Below are positions 1 to 41,719 of a stretch of DNA of 64,000 nucleotides, in pieces; the stretch's first letter is position 1; every line of letters begins with the position of its first letter. The notes under the pieces were generated by a model that worked only from the letters and a program-made list of their open reading frames with translations, was not told where the DNA came from and ran no database searches. Source of the stretch: an uncultured Clostridia bacterium. GTDB lineage: Bacteria; Bacillota; Clostridia; Oscillospirales; Ruminococcaceae. The translations under genes and the position numbers were made by a program. The stretch lies in the NCBI GenBank assembly GCA_947627455.1, contig CANQWC010000008.1:1-64000 (forward strand). Reading direction: 5' to 3'.

Positions 1-48
1 AACCCGCGGGTTTTCTGATAAATATTTTATTTGAAAGGAAGATTTTTT

Positions 49-498
49 ATGAAAAAGCTTAACAAAAAGGGCTTTACCCTTGCGGAACTCCTTATCGTTA
101 TTGCTATCATCGCAATACTTATCGCTATCGCAATTCCTGCGTTCGGCACTGCTCTCGACAATGCCCGTCTCCAGACCGACCATGCGAACATGCGTTCTTG
201 CTATGCCATGATGCAGGTTGGAAGCTTACAGGGTTACATTGAGACATCAGCAGCCGCAACACCTACCGTTAAGCTTGAGGCTACCAACAAGGGCAAGTAT
301 TACTTTAATGCTGACGGTTCTTTAAGCGGAAAGGACGATAGTAGTAAAGCTTATAAGACAGCTGCAAAGGGCGATGCTGAAAAGTGCAAGTCTTCTGCTT
401 TCTGCCAGAAGGTCACTGTAGCAAATCACCAGAAAGCAAAGGGCTTTGGTGTTCAGATTACTGACACTGGCGATATTCAGCTCTTCATCGATACCTGA
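49..498 (+). CDS. Type IV major pilin-like prepilin (class III signal KKGFTLAELLIVIAIIAIL)
   Basis: ORF 31..498; ATG at 49 follows GAAAGGAAG RBS; prepilin cleavage motif G|FTLAE plus hydrophobic helix. Confidence 0.9.
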   Translation: MKKLNKKGFTLAELLIVIAIIAILIAIAIPAFGTALDNARLQTDHANMRSCYAMMQVGSLQGYIETSAAATPTVKLEATNKGKYYFNADGSLSGKDDSSKAYKTAAKGDAEKCKSSAFCQKVTVANHQKAKGFGVQITDTGDIQLFIDT

Positions 499-755: not shown

Positions 756-1556
756 ATGTCAATCTTTCTGTTTAATCCGCTCTTGGCGGGCTATATGCTT
801 TTAATCGCGTTTTTGGTCGGCGCCTGCGCGGGCAGCCTTGTTAATTGCCTCGAGCTTCGGCTTGATAATAAATCGGGCTCGGTCTTTGGGCGCTCGGCCT
901 GTCCCAACTGCGGCCATCGGCTTGGCGTTTTTGACCTCTTCCCCGTTTTAAGCTTCGTTTTTTTGCGGGGCAGGTGCCGCTATTGCAAACAAAAAATCTC
1001 TCCCCGCTATCTTTTTGTCGAGGTCTTGTTCGGCATCGTTTATGCGGGGCTTCTGGCTCGGTTCGGGCTTTCGTGGCTAACCCTTGAATATATTCTTTTA
1101 TTCACTGTTCTGGGGGCGGCTTCGCTCTGCGATATAACAACAATGTCTGTTCCCGATTGGCTTGAAATCCTCGGCGCAGTGGTTTTCGCCCTGTTTTTAT
1201 TCACCCACCCCGAGCCGCTTATCCGCCTTCGCAACGGCGCAATTGCGCTTGTGTTGTTTGGCGGTGGGCTTTTGGCGCTCTCACTTATCGCCGACAAAAT
1301 TTATAAAAAAGATACTCTTGGCGGCGCCGATATCAAGATCTTCGGGCTTTTGGGGCTTTTCTTCGGGCCCGCAAAAACTCTTCTGCTCTTGATTTTAAGC
1401 TGCGTTTTCGGGCTTGTTCTTGCGCTTATCGCAAAGGTCGGCCTCGGAAAAGAGTTCCCCTTTATCCCCGCGATAACCCTTGCGGCTTATTTCTGCGCGC
1501 TCTTCGCCGACCCGATTTTAAACTGGTATATCGGCTTGTTCAGCTTTATGCACTGA
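756..1556 (+). CDS. Prepilin peptidase (A24 family, PilD-like)
   Basis: Polytopic membrane protein with CPNC...CRYC N-terminal motif and GGADIKIFGLLG (GxGD-like) motif. Confidence 0.92.
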   Translation: MSIFLFNPLLAGYMLLIAFLVGACAGSLVNCLELRLDNKSGSVFGRSACPNCGHRLGVFDLFPVLSFVFLRGRCRYCKQKISPRYLFVEVLFGIVYAGLLARFGLSWLTLEYILLFTVLGAASLCDITTMSVPDWLEILGAVVFALFLFTHPEPLIRLRNGAIALVLFGGGLLALSLIADKIYKKDTLGGADIKIFGLLGLFFGPAKTLLLLILSCVFGLVLALIAKVGLGKEFPFIPAITLAAYFCALFADPILNWYIGLFSFMH

Positions 1557-1572: not shown

Positions 1573-2547
1573 ATGGGAAAGAGAACCGGTGGTTTTGATA
1601 TAGGCGGCCACGCGCTTCATATAGCCGTCGCGACGAAAAAGGGCGTTAAAAAGGTTTATACCGAACCTTTGCCCGAGGGCTCGGTTCGCGACGGAAGAAT
1701 TGTTTCTTATGAAGCCATGGGCGATTTTATCAAACAAACCTGCAAAAAGCGGAAAATCCGCTTTGACGACGGCGCGGTAGTGCTGCCGTCGGGGCTTTGT
1801 TTCTGCCGAAGAATGTCTGTCCCCGTGATGACTCACGAACAGCTGATGGTAAACCTGCCCTATGAATTCCGCGACTTTATAACCTCCGAAAAAGAAGCGT
1901 ATTTTTACGACTATGCGGTTTTGCGCGTCCTCCGCGACGCTGACGAAGAGCCCGCCGAGCTTGACATAATGGCGGCTGCTGCCCTTAAAACGACCATCGC
2001 CGATTATCGCTCGATGTTTCGCCGCGCGGGAATAAAGCTTCACACCGCAATTCCGACGGAAATGTCCTTCGCGAATCTTCTTGCCCGCTGCCAAGAGGGC
2101 CACTGCCACTGTATAATCGACGTCGGCCACACCTCGGTAAGGCTTTATATGTATAACGGCAACAGGTTTGAATCTTCGCATATTATAGATTACGGCTGCG
2201 AAGCGCTCGACAACGCGATATCCGAGGCGCTTCACATCGACCCGTTCATCGCGGCCTCATATCGCGAGGCCAACCACGACGGCTGCCAGACCATTCCCGA
2301 GTGCGAGTCTATTTATCAGAGCCTCGCGGTCGAGATTCAGCGCGCCGTTCACTTCTTCCGCTATAACAACCCCGACATCGAGCTCGAGCATATTCACCTC
2401 ATCGGCGGCGGCGCGCTTATGGAGCCCCTCCGCGAGGCCCTCGAGAATACCCTGTCGGTGCCGATATACAACGCTTCCGAGCTTTTGGACGTCGACGGCG
2501 TTGAGACCGAGTTCGGTCTTGTTGCCGCGGGCGCAGCGTTACAGTAA
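1573..2547 (+). CDS. PilM-like type IV pilus assembly ATPase (actin-like fold)
   Basis: FDIGGHALHIAVA, IIDVGHTSVRLYMY and HLIGGGALMEPL motifs; position in pil operon. Confidence 0.85.
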   Translation: MGKRTGGFDIGGHALHIAVATKKGVKKVYTEPLPEGSVRDGRIVSYEAMGDFIKQTCKKRKIRFDDGAVVLPSGLCFCRRMSVPVMTHEQLMVNLPYEFRDFITSEKEAYFYDYAVLRVLRDADEEPAELDIMAAAALKTTIADYRSMFRRAGIKLHTAIPTEMSFANLLARCQEGHCHCIIDVGHTSVRLYMYNGNRFESSHIIDYGCEALDNAISEALHIDPFIAASYREANHDGCQTIPECESIYQSLAVEIQRAVHFFRYNNPDIELEHIHLIGGGALMEPLREALENTLSVPIYNASELLDVDGVETEFGLVAAGAALQ

Positions 2548-2559
2548 GGGGGCGTGGAA

Positions 2560-3327
2560 ATGAGCAAAAGCAAAGAAAAGCAGAAAAAACCTCTTAAAAA
2601 GCTGCCGTCAAAGACGACGCTAAACTTGGTCGTCAAGGTCAAAACCCTTGCCCACCCGACCCGCCTGATACCCATACTGCTTCTCATATTCGTCGGCGCG
2701 GCGCTTTTTGCGCAGTTCGCGGTCATTCGCAGGCTGAATCAGGTCAAACAGGCCGAGGCCGAGCTCGCTCAGATGCAGGAGCTTCTTGAGATGACTCAGA
2801 ACGCCTATGCCGACTATGACGCGGTTGAGGAGGAGTACAACAAGTATACCTACGACAACTTCGACCGCTCGCTCTTCGACCGAATGGATATTCTTGATCT
2901 TATACGCCGCAGGCTCTTCCCCGCGTGCACCGTTCAGAGCCTGAGCATCAGCCACAACACAAGCACGAGCAACGATATTCTTTCGCTGACCGTTACGGGC
3001 CCGACGCTCGAGGAGACATATGCGCTTGTCTCGGGGCTTTTGTCTGAGCCGATGGTCGAGGACGTGAACATCGCCTCATATGTCGACAACAGCGAGAACG
3101 CGAGCGCAGATCAGCCGAAGAGCACCGTCACGATGACGATAACGCTCATCGACGCGACAACCCTTGATGAAAAGCTTGCGGCTATCGAAGAGGCTCAGGC
3201 TATGCTCGACGGCAACACCGCCGCTGAGCCCGTTGAGCCGCCGACTACGCCTGTTGTCCTGCCCGAGAACGCTGCCGTCGGCGCTGATGACGCGGGCGCA
3301 GAAACAGATAACGGAGGCGAGGAATAA
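2560..3327 (+). CDS. PilN-like type IV pilus assembly protein
   Basis: Single N-terminal TM plus coiled coil, between PilM-like and PilO-like ORFs; alternative GTG start at 2554. Confidence 0.7.
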   Translation: MSKSKEKQKKPLKKLPSKTTLNLVVKVKTLAHPTRLIPILLLIFVGAALFAQFAVIRRLNQVKQAEAELAQMQELLEMTQNAYADYDAVEEEYNKYTYDNFDRSLFDRMDILDLIRRRLFPACTVQSLSISHNTSTSNDILSLTVTGPTLEETYALVSGLLSEPMVEDVNIASYVDNSENASADQPKSTVTMTITLIDATTLDEKLAAIEEAQAMLDGNTAAEPVEPPTTPVVLPENAAVGADDAGAETDNGGEE

Positions 3328-3329
3328 CT

Positions 3330-3875
3330 ATGTTGATGAGAAGCTTTACAAAGCGCGAAAAGATAGTTATGCTCGTCCTTGCGCTTGCCCTGATTGTCGG
3401 TTTCTATTTTCTCGCGATACACTACCCCGTCAAAACCCGCCTCGAAGAGATCGAGCTTGAAAAGGCGGAGGTCGACGAGCAGACGATGATCGCCTCGGCG
3501 ATGCTCGCGAACTATAACAAGATGAAGACCGAGCTCGAAGAAATTTTTGCCGAGCAGAACGAAAACCTTACGGTTATGCCCGAATATGACAATAAGCAGA
3601 CGCTTATCTACTACTTCAACAGCGTTTTTGCCGAGACTGCCCCGAACCTTCAGTTTTCTCAGGCGAGGATAGAGGGCAATATCGCATCGCGCTCGATCAG
3701 CTTTAACTTCACCGCGGACAGCTTTGATTCCGCAAGATCTGTCCTCGAGCTTCTGACGGGAACGGGTTTCCGCTGCTCGATGGACAACATCACAATATCA
3801 CCGACAGAGGGAGACATTGAACACGACGAGCTTCGGGTCTCGGGAAACATTGTATTTTATGAGCTTGTAAAATAA
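3330..3875 (+). CDS. PilO-like type IV pilus assembly protein
   Basis: Short bitopic protein, N-terminal TM and coiled coil, operon context. Confidence 0.7.
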   Translation: MLMRSFTKREKIVMLVLALALIVGFYFLAIHYPVKTRLEEIELEKAEVDEQTMIASAMLANYNKMKTELEEIFAEQNENLTVMPEYDNKQTLIYYFNSVFAETAPNLQFSQARIEGNIASRSISFNFTADSFDSARSVLELLTGTGFRCSMDNITISPTEGDIEHDELRVSGNIVFYELVK

Positions 3876-3899: not shown

Positions 3900-6800
3900 A
3901 TGAAATTGCTGCAGCGAATGAAATCAAAGAAAGGCTTCACGCTTGTGGAGATGGTGTTGGTCATTGCCATTTTGGCGGTGATCCTTGCATTTGCCGTGCC
4001 CGGGGTTGATTCATACGTCAAGCGCATCAAGCTCATGGAGCTTGACGATTCGGCGCGCTCAATTTTCATGGCTGCCCAGAATAAGCTCATGACCCTTCGC
4101 TCGTCAGGCAAAAGCCTTAATTTTGATGGCGCAAAATTAGTGGAACTTGAAAATGTCCCCGAAGATTTCAGAAAAGATAACGATGGCAATTTGCTTGACT
4201 TTGCGGATTCAAAGAACCCGCCGAAGTTCTCTTATATCTATTTTAATTACAGTGATGTTAAAAATAGCAATCCTGAAAAATTAGTTGATGATTCTAACAT
4301 CATCAACCTCGGCGCGATTGAGGATCAGATTTATACAAACGAATTTGTCATCGAATACGATGCCGCGACGGGCACCGTGTTCGGCGTATTTTATACCGAG
4401 GACGACGGCGCGCTCGAAGACTATGACCCCGAAAACATGGAGCGCGGCTTTGAAGAGCGCCTTGAAGCTGGCGGCACCATCGGCTATTACGGCGGAGGCA
4501 CGCTTGTTGAGGTGCCTGTTGGGGAAGAAATTACCACGCCGATAATTAAGAATGGCGCGATGGAAAAGCTTGTTGTATATGTAGAGTGGCCCGATGGCTT
4601 TGACGAAGCCGAAAAGCTTTATTTCACCCTCTCAATTGTAGGACCTGAAAAGGGTGCTGCAAGTAATATGCAAACTGTTGAAATTATCTCAAAAGATGAT
4701 TCATGTTATATTACTAAAGATAATTACAGCACTATAATTCTTGACTCGTTGGCGCCCGGGCTTAGCTCAGATAATGGACAATGGGATATTCCCAGCGATG
4801 CAGGCGATCACAACCTTTCTTACCCGTTTGTACTTGAGCGTGATTTCAAAGGCTGGGTGCTCAAGAAAAATCTTGTATTTGACTCAGAAAGAGGCGTCTA
4901 TTACCCAAAATATAAAGGCAAAATGTGGCAAGGCGCAGAGATGGAGGGGACAGAGTGGCTCCGAGATGATTACCCCATGGATCCGCAAGATAACGGTTCA
5001 TCTTCTGAGGGTCAGGGTTATCCCGGTTCCAATACAAATTCTAATTACATCATAAACCCTGGAAGCGACATCACTGTTTATGTGACCTTTTATGATAAAT
5101 CAGGCGTATATAAAGATATTCCGACTGTTAAACCGTATCCCGTCAACAGCTATTTTAACGCGCTTGATGGTACTACAGCCAAAATAGCTGCAGGCAGACA
5201 TCTTCAGAATTTATCAAACTATGTTCTGCAAGATACTGTAAGCGATGTATTTATTGAGCATGATATTGATTTCAGTAAAAGTCCCGACTCTGATACTGAT
5301 CCAGAGAAGAAAAATGTCTATTACTATTGGAACGCCGATGAAACTTATAACAGATATTATGATTTCAAGCCCATTGGAAGCCAATTTGTTAAGAATGCTA
5401 CATTCTTAAAAAATTTCGATGGAAATGGATGCACAATTTCTTATCTTAAAATTGACAGTGACGCACACCATTTTCCTGAAAATAGTTCAGGATATGAAAA
5501 TACAGCCTTTATTACGGATTTGCTTGATTCTGGCAGAATGAGTAATATAACATTTTACAGGCCATGGATTATAGGCAAAACGATAAATACTGCCGTGTTC
5601 GTCGGTAAGGCCACTGCGGGAACCAACTTCCACAATATTACCATAATAAATCCGATTGTTGAAGGCGGCGTTGAAGGCGTAGAATCTTATGTAGGAACAC
5701 TATGCGCTGATTATAACTGCAATGGTGGAATTGAAAAGTGCAATGTTGTTATAACGGATTATTCTAACGATTATGACTTTAGTTATGAAGAAGTAGTAGT
5801 AGAGGGCGAAACTTTAAAAGAATACGTCAATGAGTCGGGCAAGCACTATCAGGATTCGCTTGACTGGGGTGACCCAACTAATGACCCGTATAAAAAGTTT
5901 TATATAAAAGGCTTAACAGCCACAACATACGCTGGCGGCCTTTTGGGTAGGTCATCAGGTACTCTAAACGGCACATCATGTTCCATCAGGGTCGAGAGCG
6001 AAGGGATTGCGGGCGGACTTGTTGGTGTTATTGATGGAGGTACTGTCAATAACAATTATGTCGGCGGTCATACTTATAACGGTTCTTATATCGTAAAAAC
6101 TGATGACGGTATTTACAGCCTTATCAACATCGATGGCAAGGTGGCATCAGGCGGTTTTATTGGCGAATTGCGGGGCGGTATCAGTATGACAACTGATAGC
6201 AGCACTGCCTCGGTAGCTTATTCAAACGGCTACGGTGACGGTTTTATCGGAAAAGCCTTAAGTTCGGACAAATTCAATAACTCCTATGCTCTTGGTTGGG
6301 TGATTGATGCTGACAGCAATAAAGTAGTGAGCAAATCCTCAAAGTATGTGGCGGATATTCGAAACGTTAATAATGCTGTAACATCACAAGCTGAGCCTTA
6401 TGACAAATCGCTTGGCAATATTTACCCATATAGTAATGATAATACTTTTCCTGTTCGTGTCGGTGACTGGCCTGTCGACCCGCCGCTCTTCGGGATATTC
6501 TATTGGGAAAAAGACTCCGCAGGCAATTATAATATCGATACCATATATTATAACTGCAAAGATGGCAGCAGCGACCCCTCTATTGAGCCGACGCTGCAAG
6601 ATATTGATATAGCTGAATTCGGCTATGGATACTACTATACCTCGGCTGTCAAATCTGGAAATGAAAGCATGATGGAGGACGTCGGCAGCGCTGTCAGCAA
6701 CGACGACATCACAAAATTAAGCGGTATCATCGAGGAAAAATTAGCTGATAAAAATATTATCATCACCCCGACTGTTGTCGCGAAAAAAACCAGTGGTGAC

Positions 6801-9800
6801 GCCTATACGGCTCCGAACGGCGAGCGCCAGTCGATCACGTTCAGCTATGATGACAAGCAGATAACCTTTACTTATCACCCTGATTTCTATGCGCTTGAGA
6901 TGACCGAGGGCACAAGCACTCTCGGCGAGGTCAAGGGCAACCCGTATAAGGTCCGCTGCCAGAAACAGCTTGAAAATATTTCAAGTACCCCTGACGGCGT
7001 TTTTAAGCAGCACCGAGCGTTTGATCTCAACGAATCATATAAGCCCATTTGCACCGATGGTTACTTTACGGGGATTTATGGCGGCGGAGATTATGAGATT
7101 AGGGCTAATTCAATTTCGCATGCTTCAAATGCAGTAGGTATTTTTGCCAAGACCAGAAGCGCAACAATAGAAAATGTTAATGTTTCATATAGCGGAACAG
7201 TTTCGCTCGGCAAGCAAATTGAAAACGGGCAGAAAGCAGGCGTCGGCGGTATAGTCGGTATCGCAATAGGCGGAGTGTTGAATAATTGCTCTGTTTCAGG
7301 AATGAAGTTTGATTCAACCAGCGCTACTAAGCTTCAAAGCGGTACAAGTCTCGCTGTCGGTGGTATTGTTGGCTACAGCAGTGCTACTATACGTAAATGC
7401 GACGCTCCAAAAGTTCAGTCGGCGAATTCTATTCCGACGAATCCTATTCAATTTAATTTTAGAGCTGATACAACTAATACTTTGATAGCATTTGGAGGAA
7501 TAGCGGGTTCGGCAAGCGGAATAATTGAAAATTGTTCTATTACAAATTTAGAGACAGAATTTGAAGATAATGCCGACAATTCATTACTGATTGCAGGCGG
7601 CATTGTGGGAAATAATGTCGACTACCTTGGAAGAACGACGCTCAGCGTTTCAGGCTGCTATTCAAATGCAAAGCTGACAAGGCCATCGGGTATAAACAGC
7701 GAAGGTAAAACCACTTTTGAGTCCAACGTTCTAATACACCCGATTGCGCCTACTCATATGCATGTGGTAGCCGATGATCCTCAGTATTATTCTAATATAT
7801 CAGATGCAGATGCATATAAAGGCAAAGTTTATGAGTTCAATACGGGAACCGGTTTAAAATCAGAGGGTGGCGAACTTGATGTAACTATTACTGATTGCTC
7901 AGCTATGCAAGGTCAGGGAAGCTACAATTCTTTGGTGTGGGGTAATGAAGCAGTTACGGCATCAAAAGATGGTGAAACCAGTAAAATCCCCTATGACGTT
8001 TATATAGCCGAGCCTCCGAAGAACATACATGCGGTGGTATATGAGAGAAAAGTCCCAACCGTCGGCATTTATGCGCTCTACGAAAAAACCGATGGCGTAA
8101 ACAACTCTGCCTTGGCCGCGAAGATAATCGACAACAGCGTTTACAGCGGAAGCACTACGAATAACCAAACTATCGTAATCAACGAGGATACCAACGTCGA
8201 ATCTAAACTCGACCCGCTGCATAAATACGGCATTTTCGTCGACTTCGGGCGCTTCGAGGAAATAAGCGTTAAGGTTAATGGCGTCCCGCAGACAATCAGC
8301 CTTACTTCGTTGAAAGATATGGACGGAAAAACCCTCCATCGCACTGAAAACGGTCAGTATATTGATATTGATGTATCCTCAGCTCTTAATCTTAACAATG
8401 GCGAGAATACAATCACGATAGTTTATAAAGAGAACGAAACGACAAATAGTGAAATCTGCACATACACTATCAACGTTCCTGCCGAAAGAGAGCCTTACGC
8501 GGGCGTTTACGAGCTCTATCAACAGGGCGATACTACTCATCTTGATGCCATCTATAACGACGGCAAGAATAAAAATCAGACTGTTAAGCACAAAGATGGC
8601 GATATCAAGCTGGGCAAGTGCGGCGTAATGATTGAACATTTCACATCTGTCAACCCGAGGAATGTTGCCTTCACCGCGGAGATCAGCTATACCGAAAACG
8701 GCGAGCAAAAGACCATCAGCAACGCTGATTATGTGCTCGTTGACCCAAGCCATATCGGAAATGACGGGGAGAAAGCTCGCGCGAACGGCAAGTATTTCGA
8801 CTTCTATGAAATCAGCGATGAGGTTTACAGCGCCATTCCCGAGGATACCGACTACACAATCAAGGTGATATACAGCGGCAAGGCCATCGCCGAGGGAACG
8901 TTCCACAAGGACGTGAAAGTGCCGTATCTTGGTATTTACGGCGCGATGCGGGTTCGCAATAAGTATAATATGAATGATGAATCTTTGATTGATGATGTTG
9001 CTACCGCAGTTATTTCAAACAGTTACAAAATATCGAAAACATATAATAATATGTGGTCGGGAAATTACAGCGAAAATTATGACAAGTATTATGGCACGCA
9101 TATAATGGTTGAGAGAGGTGCTGATATTTCAAAAATCGAGCTTACTCTTACGAAGTTAGACAAGTCAACGCAAACGGTTGAAGTCAAACCTGAGTATAAG
9201 GTCGAAAACGCCGCGTATATTTTGGTCGGTGCACCGAACAGCGCCACCGTCAGCTTTTTCGAGGGCTTGATGTTTGACAGCTATAAGCTGCCCGACGATG
9301 TTATTCAAGATGTCGCCGAGATTTCTGCGACATATATTTGCTCTGACGGCAAGACGACCCAGACTGTAAACGCTAAGATTTTGGACGACTTAAAGGGTGA
9401 GATAATCGGCCACGAGCATAAATTTGGCGCGTATGAAAGTGTTGATAATAACACCCACAAGCGCACTTGCGAAGTCTGCGGATTTGTTGAAACAAGCCCG
9501 CACAACTGGGACGATGGCGTTAAATCATCAGAACATGAAGGAAAACTTAAATTCACTTGCGAAATCTGCAAGGCAACAAAGGAAGATGATGATAAGTATA
9601 ACGATAAAATGCTTTGTGTAGGTTTCTACTCCATTTATTATCAGAATTCAGATAGCGCGTCAATTGCATGGTATAACGGTCTTAATGGCAATGATGATTT
9701 TACGGTGGAAAATAAGTATGATGAAAAGTTATCACCAAGGGCCGCGGGCGATGTCGGTATTTTGATAGATTCTCAATATAAAGATTTGATTTCTGTATAT

Positions 9801-10376
9801 GTTGATGGCGAAAAGATTGATACCGCCAAGCTTACCGATAACTGGAACAATAATATAAGTGAGGCGCAGCAAAAGGCCTATAAGAATAAATATGGTGATA
9901 GTTACCCTTCGCTTTCATCTTATAAAATTCCGCTTGAACTAAATGGAGAGCTTTCAGTAACAATTACGGTAAAATACAGTGAATATGAATTATTCACGAA
10001 AGAAGTTGAGGTTCAGTCTCCGCCGACAGTTGGTGTATATAGGATATATGCAACTAACAATGGTTCTTATTATGCCTATGGCAAAAAGAGCGATGATCAA
10101 TTCATTGGAAGTCGTGACAGCGGTTGGATGGTAGCAACAAACACATATGGTCTGGTTATTGAGGAAAGCAAATCCTCAGAGATTAAAAACATGGAAATTC
10201 GTGCGGGGGGGGGTACAATTTCGCTGAGTGAAAGTAATAAGTGTTCCATCTCGAATACATGGCAAATCAATGGTTATAAGCTCATAGAATTCTCAGAAGA
10301 AATTACCGAAGGAACTACCATAGAGATTATTTACAACGGTGAAACATTAATGACCCTGAACAGCAACGATATTTAA
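3900..10376 (+). CDS. Giant prepilin-like protein (2158 aa): prepilin N-terminus, GLUG-like repeat regions, C-terminal Ig-like repeats with an embedded CxxC module
   Basis: MKSKKGFTLVEMVLVIAILAVILAF N-terminus; AGGLLGRSSGTL/AGGLVGVIDGGTVNNN/VGGIVGIAIGGVLNNCSVSG GLUG-like motifs; five xVG[IVF]Y repeats near the C-terminus. Confidence 0.9.
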   Translation: MKLLQRMKSKKGFTLVEMVLVIAILAVILAFAVPGVDSYVKRIKLMELDDSARSIFMAAQNKLMTLRSSGKSLNFDGAKLVELENVPEDFRKDNDGNLLDFADSKNPPKFSYIYFNYSDVKNSNPEKLVDDSNIINLGAIEDQIYTNEFVIEYDAATGTVFGVFYTEDDGALEDYDPENMERGFEERLEAGGTIGYYGGGTLVEVPVGEEITTPIIKNGAMEKLVVYVEWPDGFDEAEKLYFTLSIVGPEKGAASNMQTVEIISKDDSCYITKDNYSTIILDSLAPGLSSDNGQWDIPSDAGDHNLSYPFVLERDFKGWVLKKNLVFDSERGVYYPKYKGKMWQGAEMEGTEWLRDDYPMDPQDNGSSSEGQGYPGSNTNSNYIINPGSDITVYVTFYDKSGVYKDIPTVKPYPVNSYFNALDGTTAKIAAGRHLQNLSNYVLQDTVSDVFIEHDIDFSKSPDSDTDPEKKNVYYYWNADETYNRYYDFKPIGSQFVKNATFLKNFDGNGCTISYLKIDSDAHHFPENSSGYENTAFITDLLDSGRMSNITFYRPWIIGKTINTAVFVGKATAGTNFHNITIINPIVEGGVEGVESYVGTLCADYNCNGGIEKCNVVITDYSNDYDFSYEEVVVEGETLKEYVNESGKHYQDSLDWGDPTNDPYKKFYIKGLTATTYAGGLLGRSSGTLNGTSCSIRVESEGIAGGLVGVIDGGTVNNNYVGGHTYNGSYIVKTDDGIYSLINIDGKVASGGFIGELRGGISMTTDSSTASVAYSNGYGDGFIGKALSSDKFNNSYALGWVIDADSNKVVSKSSKYVADIRNVNNAVTSQAEPYDKSLGNIYPYSNDNTFPVRVGDWPVDPPLFGIFYWEKDSAGNYNIDTIYYNCKDGSSDPSIEPTLQDIDIAEFGYGYYYTSAVKSGNESMMEDVGSAVSNDDITKLSGIIEEKLADKNIIITPTVVAKKTSGDAYTAPNGERQSITFSYDDKQITFTYHPDFYALEMTEGTSTLGEVKGNPYKVRCQKQLENISSTPDGVFKQHRAFDLNESYKPICTDGYFTGIYGGGDYEIRANSISHASNAVGIFAKTRSATIENVNVSYSGTVSLGKQIENGQKAGVGGIVGIAIGGVLNNCSVSGMKFDSTSATKLQSGTSLAVGGIVGYSSATIRKCDAPKVQSANSIPTNPIQFNFRADTTNTLIAFGGIAGSASGIIENCSITNLETEFEDNADNSLLIAGGIVGNNVDYLGRTTLSVSGCYSNAKLTRPSGINSEGKTTFESNVLIHPIAPTHMHVVADDPQYYSNISDADAYKGKVYEFNTGTGLKSEGGELDVTITDCSAMQGQGSYNSLVWGNEAVTASKDGETSKIPYDVYIAEPPKNIHAVVYERKVPTVGIYALYEKTDGVNNSALAAKIIDNSVYSGSTTNNQTIVINEDTNVESKLDPLHKYGIFVDFGRFEEISVKVNGVPQTISLTSLKDMDGKTLHRTENGQYIDIDVSSALNLNNGENTITIVYKENETTNSEICTYTINVPAEREPYAGVYELYQQGDTTHLDAIYNDGKNKNQTVKHKDGDIKLGKCGVMIEHFTSVNPRNVAFTAEISYTENGEQKTISNADYVLVDPSHIGNDGEKARANGKYFDFYEISDEVYSAIPEDTDYTIKVIYSGKAIAEGTFHKDVKVPYLGIYGAMRVRNKYNMNDESLIDDVATAVISNSYKISKTYNNMWSGNYSENYDKYYGTHIMVERGADISKIELTLTKLDKSTQTVEVKPEYKVENAAYILVGAPNSATVSFFEGLMFDSYKLPDDVIQDVAEISATYICSDGKTTQTVNAKILDDLKGEIIGHEHKFGAYESVDNNTHKRTCEVCGFVETSPHNWDDGVKSSEHEGKLKFTCEICKATKEDDDKYNDKMLCVGFYSIYYQNSDSASIAWYNGLNGNDDFTVENKYDEKLSPRAAGDVGILIDSQYKDLISVYVDGEKIDTAKLTDNWNNNISEAQQKAYKNKYGDSYPSLSSYKIPLELNGELSVTITVKYSEYELFTKEVEVQSPPTVGVYRIYATNNGSYYAYGKKSDDQFIGSRDSGWMVATNTYGLVIEESKSSEIKNMEIRAGGGTISLSESNKCSISNTWQINGYKLIEFSEEITEGTTIEIIYNGETLMTLNSNDI
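10205..10213 (+). repeat. Poly-G tract (9 G) inside giant prepilin coding sequence
   Basis: GTGCGGGGGGGGGTACAATT. Confidence 0.95.
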
Positions 10377-10394: not shown

Positions 10395-11039
10395 ATGAAC
10401 CGCAAAGTCAAAGAAAAACTTAATAGCAAGCGCGGGGCTTCGGTTGTGCTGGCGCTCTTCCTGCTGTTGGTCTGCACCTTCGCGGGGACCTCGGCGCTGA
10501 CCGCTGCCCGCGCGAACGTCGGCCGTTACTCGACCATGCGCGAAACCCAGCAGGATTACCTTTCGGTCACCTCGGCCGCAAAGCTTATCATCGCTGACCT
10601 TCAAGATAACGACCAAAATGTTAAAGGCACAATTTCTTCTGGCAGCGCTACTGATTACGTGACATATTACGGTGATGAAACCTCTACTTTCTACCATTTT
10701 ATCTTGGACGACATCAAAACGCTTATGCACAATAAGGCCGCCGAAGATGTCAAGAGCAAGGGCGGCGCATGGAGCAGCTTCAAGAGCGAGACCAAAACTT
10801 TTGAAGAGCGGAATTTTACCCTCAAGATTGATGGCAAAGATGAATTCGGTGAGGTCGATGTAAGCTTCAAGATCGATTCGGGCGGCAGCGCCAAGGTGAA
10901 GCTGACCTGCGGCTCATACAGCTACAGCTTTGCGATCGGAATAGGCTTTATAAAAGACGGGGAAATAAGCGATTCCAAGGCGAGTTATATTCTTAACGTG
11001 AGCGGTGAGATTCCCGAGATCAGGCCGGAGGTGTCATGA
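10395..11039 (+). CDS. Minor pilin-like protein lacking Glu+5 (GspK/PilX-like N-terminus), copy 1
   Basis: NSKRGASVVLALFLLLVCTFAGTSALTAARANVGRYSTMRETQQDYLSVTSAAKLII; paralogue of 12051..12749. Confidence 0.75.
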   Translation: MNRKVKEKLNSKRGASVVLALFLLLVCTFAGTSALTAARANVGRYSTMRETQQDYLSVTSAAKLIIADLQDNDQNVKGTISSGSATDYVTYYGDETSTFYHFILDDIKTLMHNKAAEDVKSKGGAWSSFKSETKTFEERNFTLKIDGKDEFGEVDVSFKIDSGGSAKVKLTCGSYSYSFAIGIGFIKDGEISDSKASYILNVSGEIPEIRPEVS

Positions 11040-11362
11040 TGAAGTCAGCAAAAAAATTGCGCTCAACGCGCGGCGAGACAATGGTCGAGATGCTTGTTTC
11101 GATAACGCTGCTGGTTTTGGCGATGTCTATTCTTGGCGCGATGCTTGCCGCGGCATACCATTCAGACGAGGCAGCAAGAGCGATGGACCAAAAACTTGAA
11201 GATGAGCTCAGCCTTGCAGAAAGCCATAGAGACAGTGACCCATCAAAGTCATTAAATGGGTTTGCAGTTATTACTCTCGATGGCGGCGGCTCAGAGGTGA
11301 GAATACCCATTAAAATTCACGGCGAGGACGATGCTTTGAAATCGTATGACAAAGACCGATAA
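11036..11362 (+). CDS. Minor pseudopilin-like protein, copy 1
   Basis: STRGETMVEMLVSITLLVLAMSILGAMLAAAYHSDEAA; ATGA overlap with upstream gene; paralogue of 12746..13039. Confidence 0.75.
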   Translation: MMKSAKKLRSTRGETMVEMLVSITLLVLAMSILGAMLAAAYHSDEAARAMDQKLEDELSLAESHRDSDPSKSLNGFAVITLDGGGSEVRIPIKIHGEDDALKSYDKDR

Positions 11363-11375
11363 GGAGGGGCGGCAT

Positions 11376-11972
11376 ATGCTTAAGAAGCTCAGGAGCAAGG
11401 CGGGCCTGACCATTGTCGAGATGATGGTCACGCTTGTGCTTTTGTCGCTGTTTTCTTCGGCGTGCCTTGTCGGAATCACGTCGGCTTTTGCGTCTCGCCG
11501 CGACCATATCCGCATCGGCGACGCCGACATTCTCAAGTCGACCATCACCGAAATCATCACCCAAGAGCTGAGAATGTGCACAAATGTTGACGTTGAAAAC
11601 AAAGATATGGTTGTCTTGGGTGAAGAAGACGGTAATAAAGTTTACGGCAATATTATTTACAGCGGCGGACTTACCGTCGACGGCAAGCTCAACGAGAAAG
11701 CGAGCCTTTCCCTTAACGACGATGACAGGCTTCAGAAGACCCTTGTAAACATAAAGCTCGACGGTGAGGTTAAGAACTATCCTTATAATGTTCTCAATGA
11801 TTCTGCATACGGCGAGAACGGTTTTTTCAAGATAAAAGACCTTAAATTCAAAGTTACTGAAGCCGAAGGCGTGACGACGATTGAGGTGTCATTCAGAATT
11901 GTTGATGGCGACGATGTTGAGTATACCCAAGCTGATTTTACCGTCGTGCCGCTGAATTGGCATAAATCTTAA
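11376..11972 (+). CDS. Minor pseudopilin-like protein
   Basis: SKAGLTIVEMMVTLVLLSLFSS prepilin motif; ATG at 11376 after AAGGAGGGG RBS. Confidence 0.8.
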   Translation: MLKKLRSKAGLTIVEMMVTLVLLSLFSSACLVGITSAFASRRDHIRIGDADILKSTITEIITQELRMCTNVDVENKDMVVLGEEDGNKVYGNIIYSGGLTVDGKLNEKASLSLNDDDRLQKTLVNIKLDGEVKNYPYNVLNDSAYGENGFFKIKDLKFKVTEAEGVTTIEVSFRIVDGDDVEYTQADFTVVPLNWHKS

Positions 11973-11974
11973 AC

Positions 11975-12003
11975 CGCCGAGTGACTGCTCGGCGATGTTT
12001 TTT
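11975..12003 (+). terminator. Hairpin with T-run between the two minor-pilin modules
   Basis: CGCCGAGtgactgCTCGGCGatgTTTTTT. Confidence 0.6.
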
Positions 12004-12050: not shown

Positions 12051-12749
12051 ATGATTCATCGATTTAAAGAAAAGCTTCACGGCAACCGCGGCGCTTCGAC
12101 TGTTTTTGCGATAATTTTGCTACTGATATGTTCATTTGCGGGGTCGGCCGCGCTGGCCTCGGCGAACACGAACATCAGCCGCTTTGATAAACGCGTTGAA
12201 TATCAACAGAGCTATCTGTCGGCCTCGTCTGCGGCAAGGCTGATCATCGACGAAATCAAAAGCTGCGAGCCCATCACCGCGACGGTCGCGAACAAAAACG
12301 GCGAGGCGGATTTTGACTTTGCTTACGGCTCACTTCTTCGCCCGAACGGCGGCCTCTGCCAACTAATCTGGGAGGACATCTGCAAAATCACCGAGAGCGC
12401 GTTTTATGCCGAGGCCGATTTGGTTCGCGAAGATTCTTTCGACGGCAGCGCCTGGCAGGGCATGGCGCTCAGGAGCGTTGACCTGCCCGACGAGCGCGAG
12501 CTTATAATCAGCGCCGACGACGAAAATATCATGGCGGTGACTGCGCGGCTGAGCTATTCTGAGGAGCGCGGCGCTGAAAATTTGCATGTTTCACTGCTCT
12601 GCGGCGAATACGGGCTCGGGTTTGACGTCGGCATTGAGGTCGATATTTCGGGCATCGCGCCGATAAGCCACGAGGCAGCCGCCGAGTTTAAGTTCAATAC
12701 CGACCGAACCGAGATCGTCCGCACCGACGGCGGGGAGGAGAGCCGATGA
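12051..12749 (+). CDS. Minor pilin-like protein lacking Glu+5, copy 2
   Basis: GNRGASTVFAIILLLICSFAGSAALASANTNISRFDKRVEYQQSYLSASSAARLII, clearly similar to 10395..11039. Confidence 0.75.
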   Translation: MIHRFKEKLHGNRGASTVFAIILLLICSFAGSAALASANTNISRFDKRVEYQQSYLSASSAARLIIDEIKSCEPITATVANKNGEADFDFAYGSLLRPNGGLCQLIWEDICKITESAFYAEADLVREDSFDGSAWQGMALRSVDLPDERELIISADDENIMAVTARLSYSEERGAENLHVSLLCGEYGLGFDVGIEVDISGIAPISHEAAAEFKFNTDRTEIVRTDGGEESR

Positions 12750-13039
12750 AAAAGCTTCTTTCAAGCCGAGGCGAGACAATCGTTGAAACGCTCACGTCGA
12801 TAGCGCTTCTTGCCCTCGCGATGGCCATTCTCGCGACGATGCTCACCGCCGCTTACAGGCTCGACAAATCGGCCGAAGAAGAGGAAGAAAGGCTAAGCGC
12901 GGCGCTCAGATCTGCCGAGCTTTTCACAAACACCGTCGGCAGCAAGAATATCACGATAACCTCGGATTCGGGCAGCGTGAGCGTCGGCGTTGAGGCATAT
13001 GGCGAGCCGAACAGCAGTCTCAGGACGTACAAAAAATAA
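12746..13039 (+). CDS. Minor pseudopilin-like protein, copy 2
   Basis: SSRGETIVETLTSIALLALAMAILATMLTAAYRLDKSA, similar to 11036..11362; same ATGA overlap. Confidence 0.75.
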   Translation: MKKLLSSRGETIVETLTSIALLALAMAILATMLTAAYRLDKSAEEEEERLSAALRSAELFTNTVGSKNITITSDSGSVSVGVEAYGEPNSSLRTYKK

Positions 13040-19908: not shown

Positions 19909-22900
19909 GTGAGAAAAGTTTTTGATAAATTATCATCTAACAGATACATAACTAAATTAGCGAGTGCTGCCACGGCGGTGCGCTTTGCGCGTGCTGCCCT
20001 GACGGCGCTTCTTGCTGTCGGAATAACCCTTGGCGCGACCGTCGCCGTCAGCGCCGAGGGAACGAGGGACCTTTATGAAACGGCAAAAGTAAACTATGAG
20101 GAGGTCAACGCTACCACCAATAACTGGGAGAAGAACAGTTCCCGAATAGTTTTCCGCTTGGAAAAAACCGAGAGCGGCGGCGTTATGGGCCCGCAGAAAT
20201 TTAAATTTTATGCTTATGAAGGCGAAGTCGTCTTCCTCGGTTCAAGCGCAATACCGTCAAGCGGTGCATTAGCTGTAACAATAATTGACCCCAATGAGCA
20301 GAAGACTGAATTTAAATTTGATACTGGGGCAAACGATACTAACATAGGTCAAAATTCAACTTTGACAGGCTTCATTCCCACTCATGATAAAGAAGCCGCA
20401 GGACCGAACGGCGTGTATCTTCCTAAGATGGACTATGCCACGGGTAAGCCTGTCACTACTAAGAGTGCAGGTGATATTGAATACAACGGGCTTATATATC
20501 CGAGCAAGCCTGTCGGCGATGACGGTTATAACCCATGGGAATACCATGTGCAGACAAGCGGTCAGTATACTGTTATTTTCAATGCTCCTCATGCCAATAT
20601 ATCGACAGCAAGTAATCCACATCAGTTGCCGCTTAGTATAACGGATTTTTCTTGGGACAATACAACCAAAGCCAATGGTAAGAACTATATCGATGCATGG
20701 GATATTACTGTCGCAAAAGTGGACGGCGTGGGCGATGATGCAAAATATTATGCTCAGTCAGGCCGTGTCTGGGCGACCGCATTTACGCTGCAGACGCAAA
20801 ACAATGTATATGGTTATTTGTACAACGTCACCCGCGATGGCTATATCTGGCGCCTCGGGCTCAACGGTATTGTCCCTTGGACCACTTCGCTTTATGCCAA
20901 TGCGAGGGGAATGATCGGAACGACCACAAACGCCTCGCTTTATCATTCCATTCACGAGCCGATGTCGAATAAAACGGACACTACAACCTATAAATCTCTT
21001 CGGGATAAAAACGCAAACCCCGACGGAATAAATATTTTGGGTCCTGATAACTACACAACCGCACTTGACAGCCCATACCCGATGTTCTTCAATTATCCCG
21101 ACTCGAATATCCCTGAAAGCACCGTAAAAACTAAGGCCGACCCGCAGGGCACAGCCACCGATATACGTTTTGACGGCCGTGCTGACGGCAGTGATGATAC
21201 AGACGTTGGGGACGCAACAAAGGATAACCACGAAGGCTCAGTTGGTGCAGGCGGATATTTCCAGGTTAAGACCGAGGGCGCAACGTCATATCGTGTTATC
21301 ATCGACATGACCAATATGTTTGCCAAAAACTACCATGTAGCAGGTACACATGGTGGAAACGAAAATGTTCACGATGAGGAAATATGCCTGAGTTCGCCTG
21401 AAAAATGCGGCGCTGATGATAAAGATATAAACTTTGTTGCATATGTAAAAGATTCTGATTTTATTGTAGGTAAGGAAAAGCCTGAATGGTTTAAGGACGC
21501 TGGTTGGTACGGTATTTTTGCTGTCAAAAAAGTGCAAGATAGTGTTAAGTACGAAGATTTATATTACGACAGACACCCGAAAACTGATTCCACAATGAAG
21601 AAAGACGGCAAGTGGGACTTCAGCAGCATTATTGAGATAAAGAAGCTGGAGGGCGATGATCTTCCTGACGAGCTTAATGGTAAAGTCCCCAACGGTGAAG
21701 GCAACGATATCGGCGAATATAAATGCCTCGGCAAAATAATGCTCGGCAACGCCGTTGACAACGAAGACCCCGATGACGACCGAATCTATTGGAACGGCCG
21801 CGACCAGTACGGGCGAATTCTGCCTGTCGGTCAATATTTCGGCAACACGGGTCTCGGCAAGGTTTATGCCGAAGCTAAGAACGGCGAAATCCACTTCCCG
21901 ATCTCTGACGCCGAACAGATTCCCAACGGCCTTTCGATCTGGCTCGAAAACCCGCCTGAAACGGTCACAACTGTTGAAGCGCGTTCAAGCCTTTATTATA
22001 ATAATGTTGATAAAAGCATACTCCGTGACTATACGGTAAATGATATGTCGGGTATTGCCACTATCGGTAAAAATGAAAAGGGCGAAAAGACATTTCCAAC
22101 AACTAAAATGAAGGGAAATAATGCATGGTATTGGAACTTGCCAAGTAACCTGACATGTAACACAGGTGTAAGTGACGTCAAAGATTATGTAAACACATCA
22201 GGGAACCCGGCATTTGATAATAATACCAGTGGACAAATAAGCTACAGCGGACAGGTTACGAAAAATGCTGACAAACGTAATTGGGAATGGAATGTAAAGT
22301 CAGATGGAACAACAAAATATACCGTGTATTCTTCATGGTCTGAGGTGCCTGCTGACAAAAATAAAGAAAAAAATGATGGCACCGGTGATTTTGTAGTATA
22401 CGAAAACCACAGTATTGACGGTGTTGCGAGCTATAGCGGTAGTGAGAGCAGCAAAACGCTGACAAAAATAGCAGGTAAATTCAATCTCAACTGCGGCTCG
22501 GACCACGGCGTTGTTGACTTCTGGACCAACGTTTTAAGTTCAGGCGCAGTAGTCCTTGATGAACCTGTTGTGCTCACCCACGTTGCCGATCAGGTAATCG
22601 TCAGCGGATTTGTATTCCTTGACGAGGAAGTATCATTTAACACGACAGATGAAAAATACGACACTCAAACCAACGACCGCGCTATCGCAAACGCAAAGGT
22701 TCATGCTGAGTATTATTCAGATAACAATAAGGGAGGAACGAAGACCGAATACGATACCCACACCAACACCGACGGTATTTACTCAATTCCTGTTGATGAG
22801 GCTAAATTGGGTCCTGATAAATTGGTTTACATAACCGTTACCTACAATGACCCCGAGGTTTCTGCCAACGTCATAACTCACCGCGTTACAACCGTAGATA

Positions 22901-25900
22901 AATCAAAAAACGATGCAAAGCTTAATCCTACATTAACGGGCGGCGTGGACGGCCATCGCTCAAAGCAGGAGCATGGTTCCGCTATAAACGAGTGCAAGAT
23001 AACCATATCACTCAAACCGATTGGGCAGGACGCTAACGGTAAAGATATAACACAAAAGGTTTTCTATGCCACAAACGTTGGCTATTTTGCCACGCCCTAC
23101 AGCGGCGTTCAGACATCTGATGAAAACGACCCGCTGATGATTCAGAAGAGCTGGGACCCTGCCGATAAAAAGACTTCAAGCCTTAACGCTACCTTTACGA
23201 TTTTAGGCTTTACGACTGACAATCACTTAGATGCTGAAAGCACAACAACAGCTGGCCCAGGTCCTACCGAGACGCAGCCACCTAAATATACTGTCGATGC
23301 AAACGGAAATGTCAAAAATGGCGAAACGGTAGTATCTGCGTATAGCAGTAGTAACCAAACCGGCTATATATTCAAAAGGCAGCATGTTTCTGTAAACGAG
23401 GCAGAAGCGGGCGTCACCAAAATCACCGACCTGCCGATGTACTATTATCCGAATGGAACAACAGATGAAAATCGCAATACAGCAAAGCAGCGAATTTACT
23501 ATATCGTTATTGAAGAGCCCATCGGAGGAAAGGCCGCACAACCGACGGTTAAATATGAGGCCGATTATCATGACGGCACTCAGACAGCACCGTTGTATTA
23601 TTACTGGCATTTCACCAACAAAATTGAAGTTACGTCCTTTAAAGAAACCGTATTCCTTGACAAAGATAATGATGGTGTGTTTGATAAAGGGCTAAACGAT
23701 GATAAAAAAGAGGAGCTTTCAACGGCGTCTCTCAGCATTGCTTTGTCTAACGCTGGCGAGAAGCAGAACATTACCTATACGCCCAGTGATGATGAAGTAA
23801 AGTGGCTAAATGAACATCCTGATAATATGTTTGCTGACAGGTGCAAGGTTAGTGAAGGTTATGATTATGATTATACAACCTTTACCATAACGACTGATGA
23901 TGAGTTTAAACTCGATTTTGATAATCCCAATAACCCATTTGTTGAGGGCGACGGCGTCATTCAGTTTGATGGCCTCCCGCAGGGAACATATATTATAACC
24001 ATAGAATACCCGACCAACGAGGCATATAACAATGCGTTCATTCTCGGCGACGAGAAAGAATATGGCGGCGAAATTAAAAATGTTTATGAAAACATAGAAG
24101 ATGTTGACATTTCTGCCAAGCGCGATGGCAATACCGTTGTGCAAACCGTTAATTTGAAGCCTCTTGAAACAGGCAAGGTCGCCTCGACTATGGTCGGTGT
24201 CGGCAGCTTTAACGAAACAAAAGCCATAGCCGATATTCTCAACGCCCAGGGCATATCAATTCAAAAAACCGTCACCGGCGGCTCGGGCGCCATTCCCTTT
24301 ACCGATGATTTTGAATTCACTCTTGAGTTTAAAGCCGAAGACCCCAAGGTAGAAACAACCGGCTCTGGATCCTTAACAACCCCCTATCGAGCGACTTTTG
24401 AAAACTATCATTATTCAACGGTTAATAGTTCCCCCAAGGCCGATGTTAAAAACTTTGGAGAAGCCGTCGATATTACCGGCTTTGAAACTATCAGTTTCCA
24501 TGCCGCCGGTAAGTTCACCTATACTTTAAGTGAGAATATCCCCACAGACGATCCAATCCCCGGCGTTACATATGATAAGTCCGAGTATGAAATAGTATTC
24601 AAGGCGGTAAATGACACTACCAAGAATACTGCTGAGATTACAGTCGAGGTCAAACAAACCAAGGATAAGGGCGGAACTGTACTTAGCGCATCTGAAACTG
24701 TTGACCCCAAAAATATCACCTTTACCAACGACTATCCCACGGGAAGCGTCAAGGTCACGAACACTATCGAAGGCACGAGTGTGCCCGAAAACAAGGAATT
24801 TGAGTATACCGTCAGTATTCAATATGATGATGGCAGCGGCCTTAAAAATCTTGATGGCACCTTTGCGTTGGTATCTGGCTCTACGAATACTACAATCTCC
24901 AATGGCGGTACGTTTTCGCTGAAAAATGGCGAGAGCTTCACAATCTCAAATCTTCCTGATGGCGCCAAAGTAACCGTCACCCAAACGCCCGATACGATGT
25001 ATGATACCTCCATCACAGTCAATAAAATCGACGCCAGTGACAGCTCTGTTACCATTGGAAATACTGAGCAAGAAATAGGTTTCACAAACAAACACCACGA
25101 GGGCAGCCTCTCAATCAAAAAGGAAGTCAAAGACGACAATTCCAGCAATGATTTTGGGTTCGATTTTACCGTGACGGTTAATGGCATAACTGAGAGCAAA
25201 ACGAATAGAATCGAGTCTGCTAAGCCATACAGTGGCGAGGCCACGTTGAAGATTGATGGGACTTCTAAGCCGAATTTGGAATTTAAAGATGGAATAGCTT
25301 CATTTACAATCAAAAAGAATCAGACCGCGTTAATCAGCGGCCTGCCCGATGGCGCGTCATTCACTGTTACGGAGACTGAAAACAGCTTTTACACACCTGA
25401 TGAAAGAGTATTAAATGGCACTATCGACAAGGGTAACCCCGCCGCGCTCACCGTCACCAACACTTACAAAACTAACAGCATCAAGGTCATCAAGGAAGTC
25501 GAGGGCGCTGACGGCATTACGCTTCCTGATGGTGTGATGAATAAAGAGTTCACGTTTACTCTCACCGTCACCCCGCAGCCTGGCAACAATTGGAATCCAA
25601 AAACACTTGAAACGGTGCCAAATAGTATTAACCTTACAAAAGTTGATACTGCCGATAAGCCAACATGGACTTTTAAGCTCAGTGATAGTAAATCCGTTGA
25701 GATTAAGGGTCTTCCCGTCGGCGCGACCTATACTGTCAAAGAATCTCCCGACGCATACTACAATACGGCGTATTCAATAGAAAATGTTGATACGACGTCG
25801 CAGAAAATTACCGATGATCCTATTGAGCTCACCGTCACCAACACCTATAAAACAGGCAGCCTGATCGTCGGCAAAAAAGTTTCTCATGCACAAGGCGTTA

Positions 25901-41615: not shown

Positions 41616-41719
41616 AACAGTACGCATGGGCGACCTGCGAATACCTAAGAAATCCCTGCTTCCCGCGCTAATATTTTCAACGCGAGAAATTTTTTGTGCA
41701 TAGAATTGGAGGAAAAACT

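What the first reader, a model, noticed from the sequence alone, without database searches (positions are those of the whole stretch)
3900..10376. Giant 2158-aa protein anchored by a type IV prepilin N-terminus
Typical type IV pilins are 100-200 aa. This ORF keeps a perfect class III leader (KKGFTLVEMVLVIAILAV) but carries about 2100 aa of GLUG-like and Ig-like repeats and sits in an operon with PilD/M/N/O-like genes. It is plausibly a pilus-tip adhesin, filament-anchored by its N-terminal helix. How such a large subunit passes through assembly is unclear.
Basis: partly seen in the sequence, partly recalled or inferred. Interest (0 to 1): 0.7.

Follow-up and report, generated by a model that had tools for sequence, protein, structure and literature searches.

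The report
Giant modular pilin of Clostridia pili
This gut Clostridium-like bacterium encodes a 2,158-residue protein that begins exactly like a small pilus building block and continues as a long string of surface modules, and the same odd giant recurs beside the pilus-tip genes of many other Clostridia, which suggests a long sticky head carried on the end of the pilus.

Summary
The ORF at 3900-10376 (2158 aa) opens with a canonical type IV prepilin leader (PF07963 over cut-off), has only one hydrophobic segment, and sits 24 bp after pilO and 18 bp before a GspK/PilX-like gene. It is a real, conserved gene family: related giants occupy the same slot in 9 of the 14 PilM-positive genomes of the genus. 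Prepilin-headed giants of 1,118-5,255 aa recur across the class; 23 of the 32 with a readable downstream side are followed directly by a K-like tip pilin. Predicted structure shows a pilin-type helix, then two beta-solenoids that match the beta-helix of M26 IgA1 proteases (Z about 19-25, next unrelated fold about 13) without the catalytic motif, then Ig-like repeats. The genomes lack a secretin (0 of 31 and 0 of 15), so no outer-membrane gate limits size. Best reading: a giant modular minor pilin of the tip complex, probably an adhesin. The kind (modular pilin) is known; the size and the recurrent giant-K-I-J gene cassette are the new part. Processing, location and ligand are untested.

The parts
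31..498 (+). major-pilin-like prepilin, 155 aa as called
   Evidence: PF07963 E 1.1e-8
756..1556 (+). PilD prepilin peptidase
   Evidence: PF06750 E 1.1e-25 and PF01478 E 2.8e-13
1573..2547 (+). PilM
   Evidence: PF11104 E 1.2e-20
2554..3327 (+). PilN-like, by position and N-terminal membrane segment only
   Evidence: no convincing family hit; same place and length range in relatives
3330..3875 (+). PilO-like
   Evidence: T2SSM E 2e-4, below cut-off; syntenic in relatives
3900..10376 (+). giant modular pilin, 2158 aa
3900..3935 (+). leader peptide aa 1-12, predicted cut after Gly12
   Evidence: PF07963; Gly12 and Glu17 invariant in 16 of 16
3936..4514 (+). pilin module, aa 13-205: long helix (model 15-68) then strands at 148-154, 160-166, 195-198
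   Evidence: model; identity of aa 1-70 is 70-77% to the four closest relatives
4569..4745 (+). beta-sandwich linker domain, aa 224-282
   Evidence: model
5193..6509 (+). solenoid I, aa 432-870, opens with the conserved GRHLQNL motif
   Evidence: VIA Z 23.9 to 3n6z and 22.0 to S. pneumoniae IgA1 protease 6xja
6867..7799 (+). solenoid II, about aa 990-1300
   Evidence: VIA Z 25.1 to 3n6z and 23.1 to 6xja
8058..10373 (+). Ig-like repeats, aa 1387-2158, five copies marked by [VAL]G[IVF]Y
   Evidence: low-confidence model
9390..9614 (+). Cys/His segment aa 1831-1905 with two CxxC pairs, zinc-ribbon-like
   Evidence: reading of the sequence
10395..11039 (+). K-like (GspK/PilX) minor pilin without Glu5
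   Evidence: NF037980 GspK E 0.006, far below its cut-off; Leu at position 5
11036..11362 (+). I-like (PilV) minor pilin
   Evidence: weak TIGR02523 E 0.014; position
11346..11972 (+). J-like (PilW) minor pilin
   Evidence: PF07963 E 9.4e-5; position
11975..11994 (+). terminator-like hairpin followed by a T run, at the end of the J gene
   Evidence: 21 found in the region, 15.3 expected by shuffling, so weak alone
12051..12749 (+). second K-like minor pilin
   Evidence: same RGAS leader, no Glu5, by eye; no Pfam hit
12746..13039 (+). second I-like minor pilin
   Evidence: ComGE/XpsI-type hits below cut-off

Best explanation
It is a giant modular minor pilin of a monoderm type IV pilus. Steps shown here: prepilin leader with Gly-1 and Glu5; one membrane segment; operon with PilD-M-N-O and K-I-J minor pilins, with PilB, PilT and PilC in the same genome; conserved family in the same slot. 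Steps inferred: the protein is inserted in the membrane by the general secretory route with its 2,100-residue part outside, cut by PilD, and built into the filament start together with K, I and J. K, which lacks Glu5, would be the apex subunit; the giant, which keeps Glu5, would dock below it. Its two solenoids and Ig-like repeats would then project from the growing tip as a long stalk that binds a ligand on host mucus, food particles or other cells, and PilT retraction would pull on it.
For: Leader and single anchor. Gene spacing of 24 bp and 18 bp. Same slot in 9 of 14 PilM-positive genomes of the genus. Of 36 prepilin-headed giants of at least 1000 aa examined, 18 have PilO directly upstream, and of the 32 with a readable downstream side 23 are followed directly by K and 1 by I-J (the K behind L028 is read from L073). 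Glu5 kept in 16 of 16 aligned giants and missing in 13 of 13 K proteins read; PMC10628169 (passages) states that Glu5 is not needed and is absent in the apex subunit. Published modelling puts bulky modular pilins at the tip (passages of PMC8179133, PMC9934059, PMC10628169, PMC6561018). Solenoids match IgA1-protease beta-helices. No secretin. Identity to the four closest relatives falls from 70-77% in aa 1-70 to 36-40% in the solenoids and 22-34% in the Ig-like part, as expected of a fixed anchor under a diversifying head. PilB, PilT-like and PilC found in G000.
Against: No experiment. Three PilM-positive genomes of the genus have no pilin in the slot and two have only 660-683 aa, so the giant is not needed for the machine. 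Four related giants of the genus lie away from any pil gene in the stretches read, so the operon is not obligatory. The distal half folds with low confidence (mean pLDDT 61). The pilin module was not tested against solved pilins by fold: the solenoids filled the match list. Adhesion is inferred from module type alone.
Confidence: 0.75

Rival explanations
1. It is a surface protein that borrows a prepilin leader as a membrane anchor and spans the cell wall on its own, without entering the filament.
For: Four related giants of the genus form one clade away from the pil operon (tree 100/99). Some genomes have the pilus genes without a giant.
Against: The slot between pilO and K is kept across several families of the class, and Glu5, which serves filament packing, is invariant.
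Confidence: 0.13
2. The modules are enzymatic: a beta-helix glycan lyase or protease displayed by the pilus, or a secretion-type pseudopilus.
For: Beta-helix folds include pectate lyases and phage depolymerases (Z about 11-13). The nearest fold is part of a protease. One giant elsewhere scores PF05342, M26 N-terminal region (L047).
Against: No HExxH in the window protein, no enzyme family in Pfam, and the protease match covers the non-catalytic beta-helix only.
Confidence: 0.08
3. It decorates the filament shaft and not the tip.
For: It keeps Glu5 like a major pilin; PMC8179133 does not exclude shaft positions if the linker is flexible (passage).
Against: Published modelling finds bulky modules incompatible with the shaft (passages); gene company is K-I-J.
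Confidence: 0.04

Closest known systems
Modular type IV pilins, e.g. Streptococcus sanguinis PilB (vWA) and PilC (lectin); PMC8179133, PMC9934059
   Same: Prepilin module at the N-terminus, unrelated adhesive-type modules behind it, monoderm host, minor pilin of the tip set.
   Different: PilB and PilC are 50.5 and 52.8 kDa; this is 236 kDa, and others reach 5,255 aa. Modules are two GLUG-type solenoids and Ig-like repeats. PMC8179133 reports over 1,200 modular pilins and 264 architectures and, as its extreme case of multiple added domains, an 860-residue protein; it also mentions pilins with IPR011493 (from memory, the GLUG entry), so GLUG on a pilin is probably not new.
ComZ of Thermus thermophilus (PMC6561018)
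   Same: Pilin with a large beta-solenoid, argued to fit only at the tip.
   Different: One solenoid of about 380 residues inserted inside the pilin sheet, diderm host, binds DNA. Here the solenoids follow the pilin module and there are two.
HIJK tip complex of T4aP and T2SS
   Same: The giant lies next to K-, I- and J-like genes, where an H-like subunit could sit.
   Different: No H family model fits: TIGR01708 GspH 17.9 bits against a cut-off of 80.
M26 IgA1 protease beta-helix (PMC7695701; PDB 6xja, 3n6z)
   Same: Beta-helix fold, Z about 19-25 for both solenoids.
   Different: No HExxH, so no catalytic centre of that family.
PilC/PilY1 tip adhesin of diderms
   Same: Very large effector carried by minor pilins (PMC9934059 calls PilC/PilY1 extremely large and absent in monoderms; passage).
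   Different: PilY1 is not a pilin; the giant has a pilin N-terminus.

Membership tests
Modular type IV pilin | N-terminal class III signal (PF07963 / TIGR02532) | tested here: met
   27.8 against 21.2 bits; 26.3 against 16.3 bits
Modular type IV pilin | extra C-terminal module not specific to pili | tested here: met
   GLUG in 5 of 12 family members; IgA1-protease-type solenoids by fold. Pfam finds no second domain in the window protein itself
Modular type IV pilin | globular pilin fold behind the helix | tested here: inconclusive
   model has a helix at 15-68 and strands at 148-166 and 195-198; no fold match listed for this part
Modular type IV pilin | processing by PilD and presence in filaments | not testable with these tools
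   needs protein work
T4aP machinery in a monoderm | PilB, PilT, PilC, PilD, PilM, PilN, PilO present, secretin absent | tested here: met
   PilB, PilT-like and PilC at G000:C18:37599-41614, PilD and PilM in the window, PilN/PilO by weak score and synteny only; secretin 0 of 31 with 6 of 14 control genomes positive
GspH/FimU (H subunit) | score over the equivalog cut-off | tested here: not met
   TIGR01708 17.9 against 80 bits
M26 IgA1 protease | HExxH zinc motif | tested here: not met
   none in the protein
M26 IgA1 protease | beta-helix fold | tested here: met
   Z about 19-25
PilC/PilY1 | PF05567 beta-propeller in the giant | tested here: not met
   no hit in the giant. The genome-wide search gave 0 of 31, but its control rang in 0 of 14, so that part shows nothing

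The most novel reading that the evidence does not exclude
Across the class of this organism, monoderm type IV pili commonly carry one giant pilin of about 1,100 to 5,300 residues as a dedicated tip effector, encoded as a giant-K-I-J cassette. It would be the monoderm counterpart of the PilY1 cap, with freely exchangeable IgA1-protease-type solenoids, Ig-like and other modules. Unlinked paralogues in the genus would give a cell alternative tips on one machine.
Probability: 0.45. Interest if true: 0.72.

Novelty: new variant of a known kind. Interest (0 to 1): 0.56.

Why it matters
Type IV pilins are textbook small proteins. A recurrent class of pilins ten to thirty times larger, encoded beside the tip-complex genes, would show that filament subunits can carry very large cargo where there is no outer-membrane pore. 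It would give gut Clostridia a candidate long-reach attachment device, and it offers a clean system for asking what limits subunit size in pilus assembly.

Tried and rejected
Rejected: sequencing or frame artefact (homologues with open frames in many independent genomes). Rejected: IgA1 protease (no HExxH). Rejected: sortase-anchored wall protein (no LPXTG-like motif, one membrane segment). Left open: an H-subunit identity (no family score).

Led nowhere or weak: Pfam on the giant itself finds only the leader. phmmer against PDB sequences finds only pilin N-termini and one chance hit. Fold search of the distal half gives generic Ig folds. The PilY1 genome search had a silent control. The promoter scan gave nothing worth using.

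Selection: the 36 giants were found by similarity to the window protein or by reading long open frames out of lists cut at about 150 rows, so 23 of 32 is not an unbiased rate. Dropped from the 36 before counting downstream genes: L024, L049, L060 and L105, cut by a contig end or by the stretch fetched; the 3' remainder of the L024 gene (L040) was not counted as a separate giant, though it too is followed by K. Against a general rule: among genomes with a PilM match, fetched and read, G143, G194, G216, G130, G183, G066, G043, G068, G116, G061, G093, G135 and G204 show no giant in the slot. Several of these have a K of 555-946 aa instead. Other PilM-matching loci that I read (G054, G185, G119, G170, G070, G102) were too short, rearranged or not clearly a pilus locus, and are left out of both counts.

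Literature: searches of the held open-access library; none listed a pilin over 1,000 residues in what I saw (titles, abstract starts), but subscription journals and supplements were not seen. Papers: PMC8179133, PMC9934059, PMC10191384, PMC10628169, PMC6561018 and PMC7695701 read as passages only; all others as search listings.
Full report
What is there. The window starts inside a type IV pilus operon, at the end of a contig (G000:C8:1). In order: a major-pilin-like gene (31), PilD (756), PilM (1573), PilN-like (2554), PilO-like (3330), the giant (3900-10376), K-like (10395), I-like (11036), J-like (11346), a terminator-like hairpin (11975-11994), then a second K-like and I-like pair (12051, 12746). 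PilB, PilT-like and PilC lie together on another contig of the same genome, C18:37599-41614. In relatives they stand directly upstream in the same operon, so the contig break probably splits one operon.

The giant. 2158 aa; prepilin leader over the Pfam and NCBIfam cut-offs; one hydrophobic segment; no sortase-like motif; mature mass 236 kDa. Alignment of 12 giants of the genus shows invariant Gly12, Glu17 (Glu5 of the mature chain), a conserved helix, a conserved pilin-sheet stretch (around aa 147-165), the motif GRHLQNL at 432-438, and two GGhhG-rich solenoid blocks. GLUG (PF07581) is scored in 5 of 12 of them.

Structure. Model of aa 1-985 (16 sequences, mean pLDDT 68, pTM 0.58): helix 15-68, strands at 148-166 and 195-198, sandwich 224-282, solenoid with block pLDDT up to 94. 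Model of aa 985-2158 (11 sequences, pLDDT 61, pTM 0.46): a second solenoid, then Ig-like sandwiches. Both solenoids match 3n6z (a putative IgA1 protease of Bacteroides ovatus) and the beta-helix of M26 IgA1 proteases at Z about 19-25, while the next beta-helices score about 13. In S. pneumoniae IgA1 protease that beta-helix (residues 781-1070) is a non-catalytic domain that moves to gate substrate access (PMC7695701, passages). The giant has no HExxH.

Distribution in the genus. 14 of 31 genomes have PilM. Nine have a giant in the slot (G000, G015, G017, G010, G021, G007, G004, G018, G019; 1659-2620 aa, G021 cut), two have a 660-683 aa protein there (G011, G005), three have nothing between pilO and K (G003, G016, G028). 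Three genomes carry four further giants away from pil genes (L027, L029, L030, L031); these form one clade (100/99) in a tree of aa 1-440 of 16 giants, so they are one older paralogue line and, except for one pair, not fresh copies.

Distribution beyond. Named MAG records with relatives come mostly from the 'Lapin' isolate series titled Clostridia, Gemmiger, Acetatifactor or Eisenbergiella, plus two other MAGs (17 loci, many of them the same contigs as the G genomes); that Lapin means rabbit gut is my reading. In other families of the order and class, giants of 1,118 to 5,255 aa occur. Of 36 examined, 18 follow PilO directly; of 32 with a readable downstream side, 23 are followed directly by K, 1 by I-J, and 8 stand elsewhere. 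The far ones share the leader and the place but not always the modules: Listeria-Bacteroides repeats (L102, L103), an F5/8 type C domain (L045), the M26 N-terminal region (L047), GLUG (L100). This is what a modular slot would look like.

Mechanism. The K proteins lack Glu5 in 13 of 13 read while the giants keep it in 16 of 16. Glu5 pairs with the N-terminus of the subunit above (PMC10191384, passage) and is dispensable at the apex (PMC10628169, passage). Hence K at the apex and the giant below is the simplest order; this is inference. Pilins polymerise from the membrane with their bulk outside (established knowledge), and these cells have no secretin (0 of 31; 0 of 15 giant-bearing genomes; control 6 of 14 in both), so size is not limited by an outer-membrane pore. 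Identity to the four closest relatives is 70-77% in aa 1-70, 44-48% in the pilin sheet, 36-40% in the solenoids and 22-34% in the Ig-like part (30-38% in the small Cys/His segment, three relatives). A conserved anchor under a diversifying distal part fits a display device whose ligand varies.

Known or new. Modular pilins are established (PMC8179133: over 1,200 proteins, 264 architectures; passages), and a tip pilin with a solenoid is known (ComZ, PMC6561018; passages). New here are the size class and its recurrent cassette with K-I-J. I saw no pilin over 1,000 residues in the eight literature searches named under Tried and rejected, which cover open-access papers only.

Limits. No ligand, no processing, no location was shown. 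The pilin fold itself was not matched. The set of giants was not drawn at random. At least 13 PilM-positive genomes outside the genus that I read have no giant in the slot, so the design is common but not general.

Noticed in passing
window 19909-35424 (+): A 5171-aa surface protein with many FctA (Spy0128-like isopeptide), DUF7601 and DUF5979 repeats, ending in an LPATE-like motif and a hydrophobic tail by eye: a second giant adhesin-like protein about 9.5 kb downstream of the giant pilin gene.
   Followed up: partly
L036:7696-9690 (G000 contig C2): A second, unlinked modular pilin of 664 aa in the same genome, with a prepilin leader and a GLUG motif over the Pfam cut-off.
   Followed up: partly
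L082, L083, L084, L086, L088, L089: Other genera of the same family lack the giant but have a very large K-like protein (780-946 aa) right after pilO, perhaps another way to load the tip.
   Followed up: no
G071 (many contigs): One genome shows 24 prepilin-leader matches, many in scattered open frames of about 470-630 aa: a possible expansion of mid-size modular pilins.
   Followed up: no
window 9390-9614, and L027, L029, L030, L031: Cys/His-rich zinc-ribbon-like units inside the giants, expanded in the unlinked paralogues, where they interrupt solenoid II.
   Followed up: no
window 12051-13039: A second K-like and I-like pair after the terminator-like hairpin; I did not see such a second pair in the other genus loci that I read.
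   Followed up: no
window 41696-46138 (+): A 1480-aa ORF without any Pfam hit.
   Followed up: no
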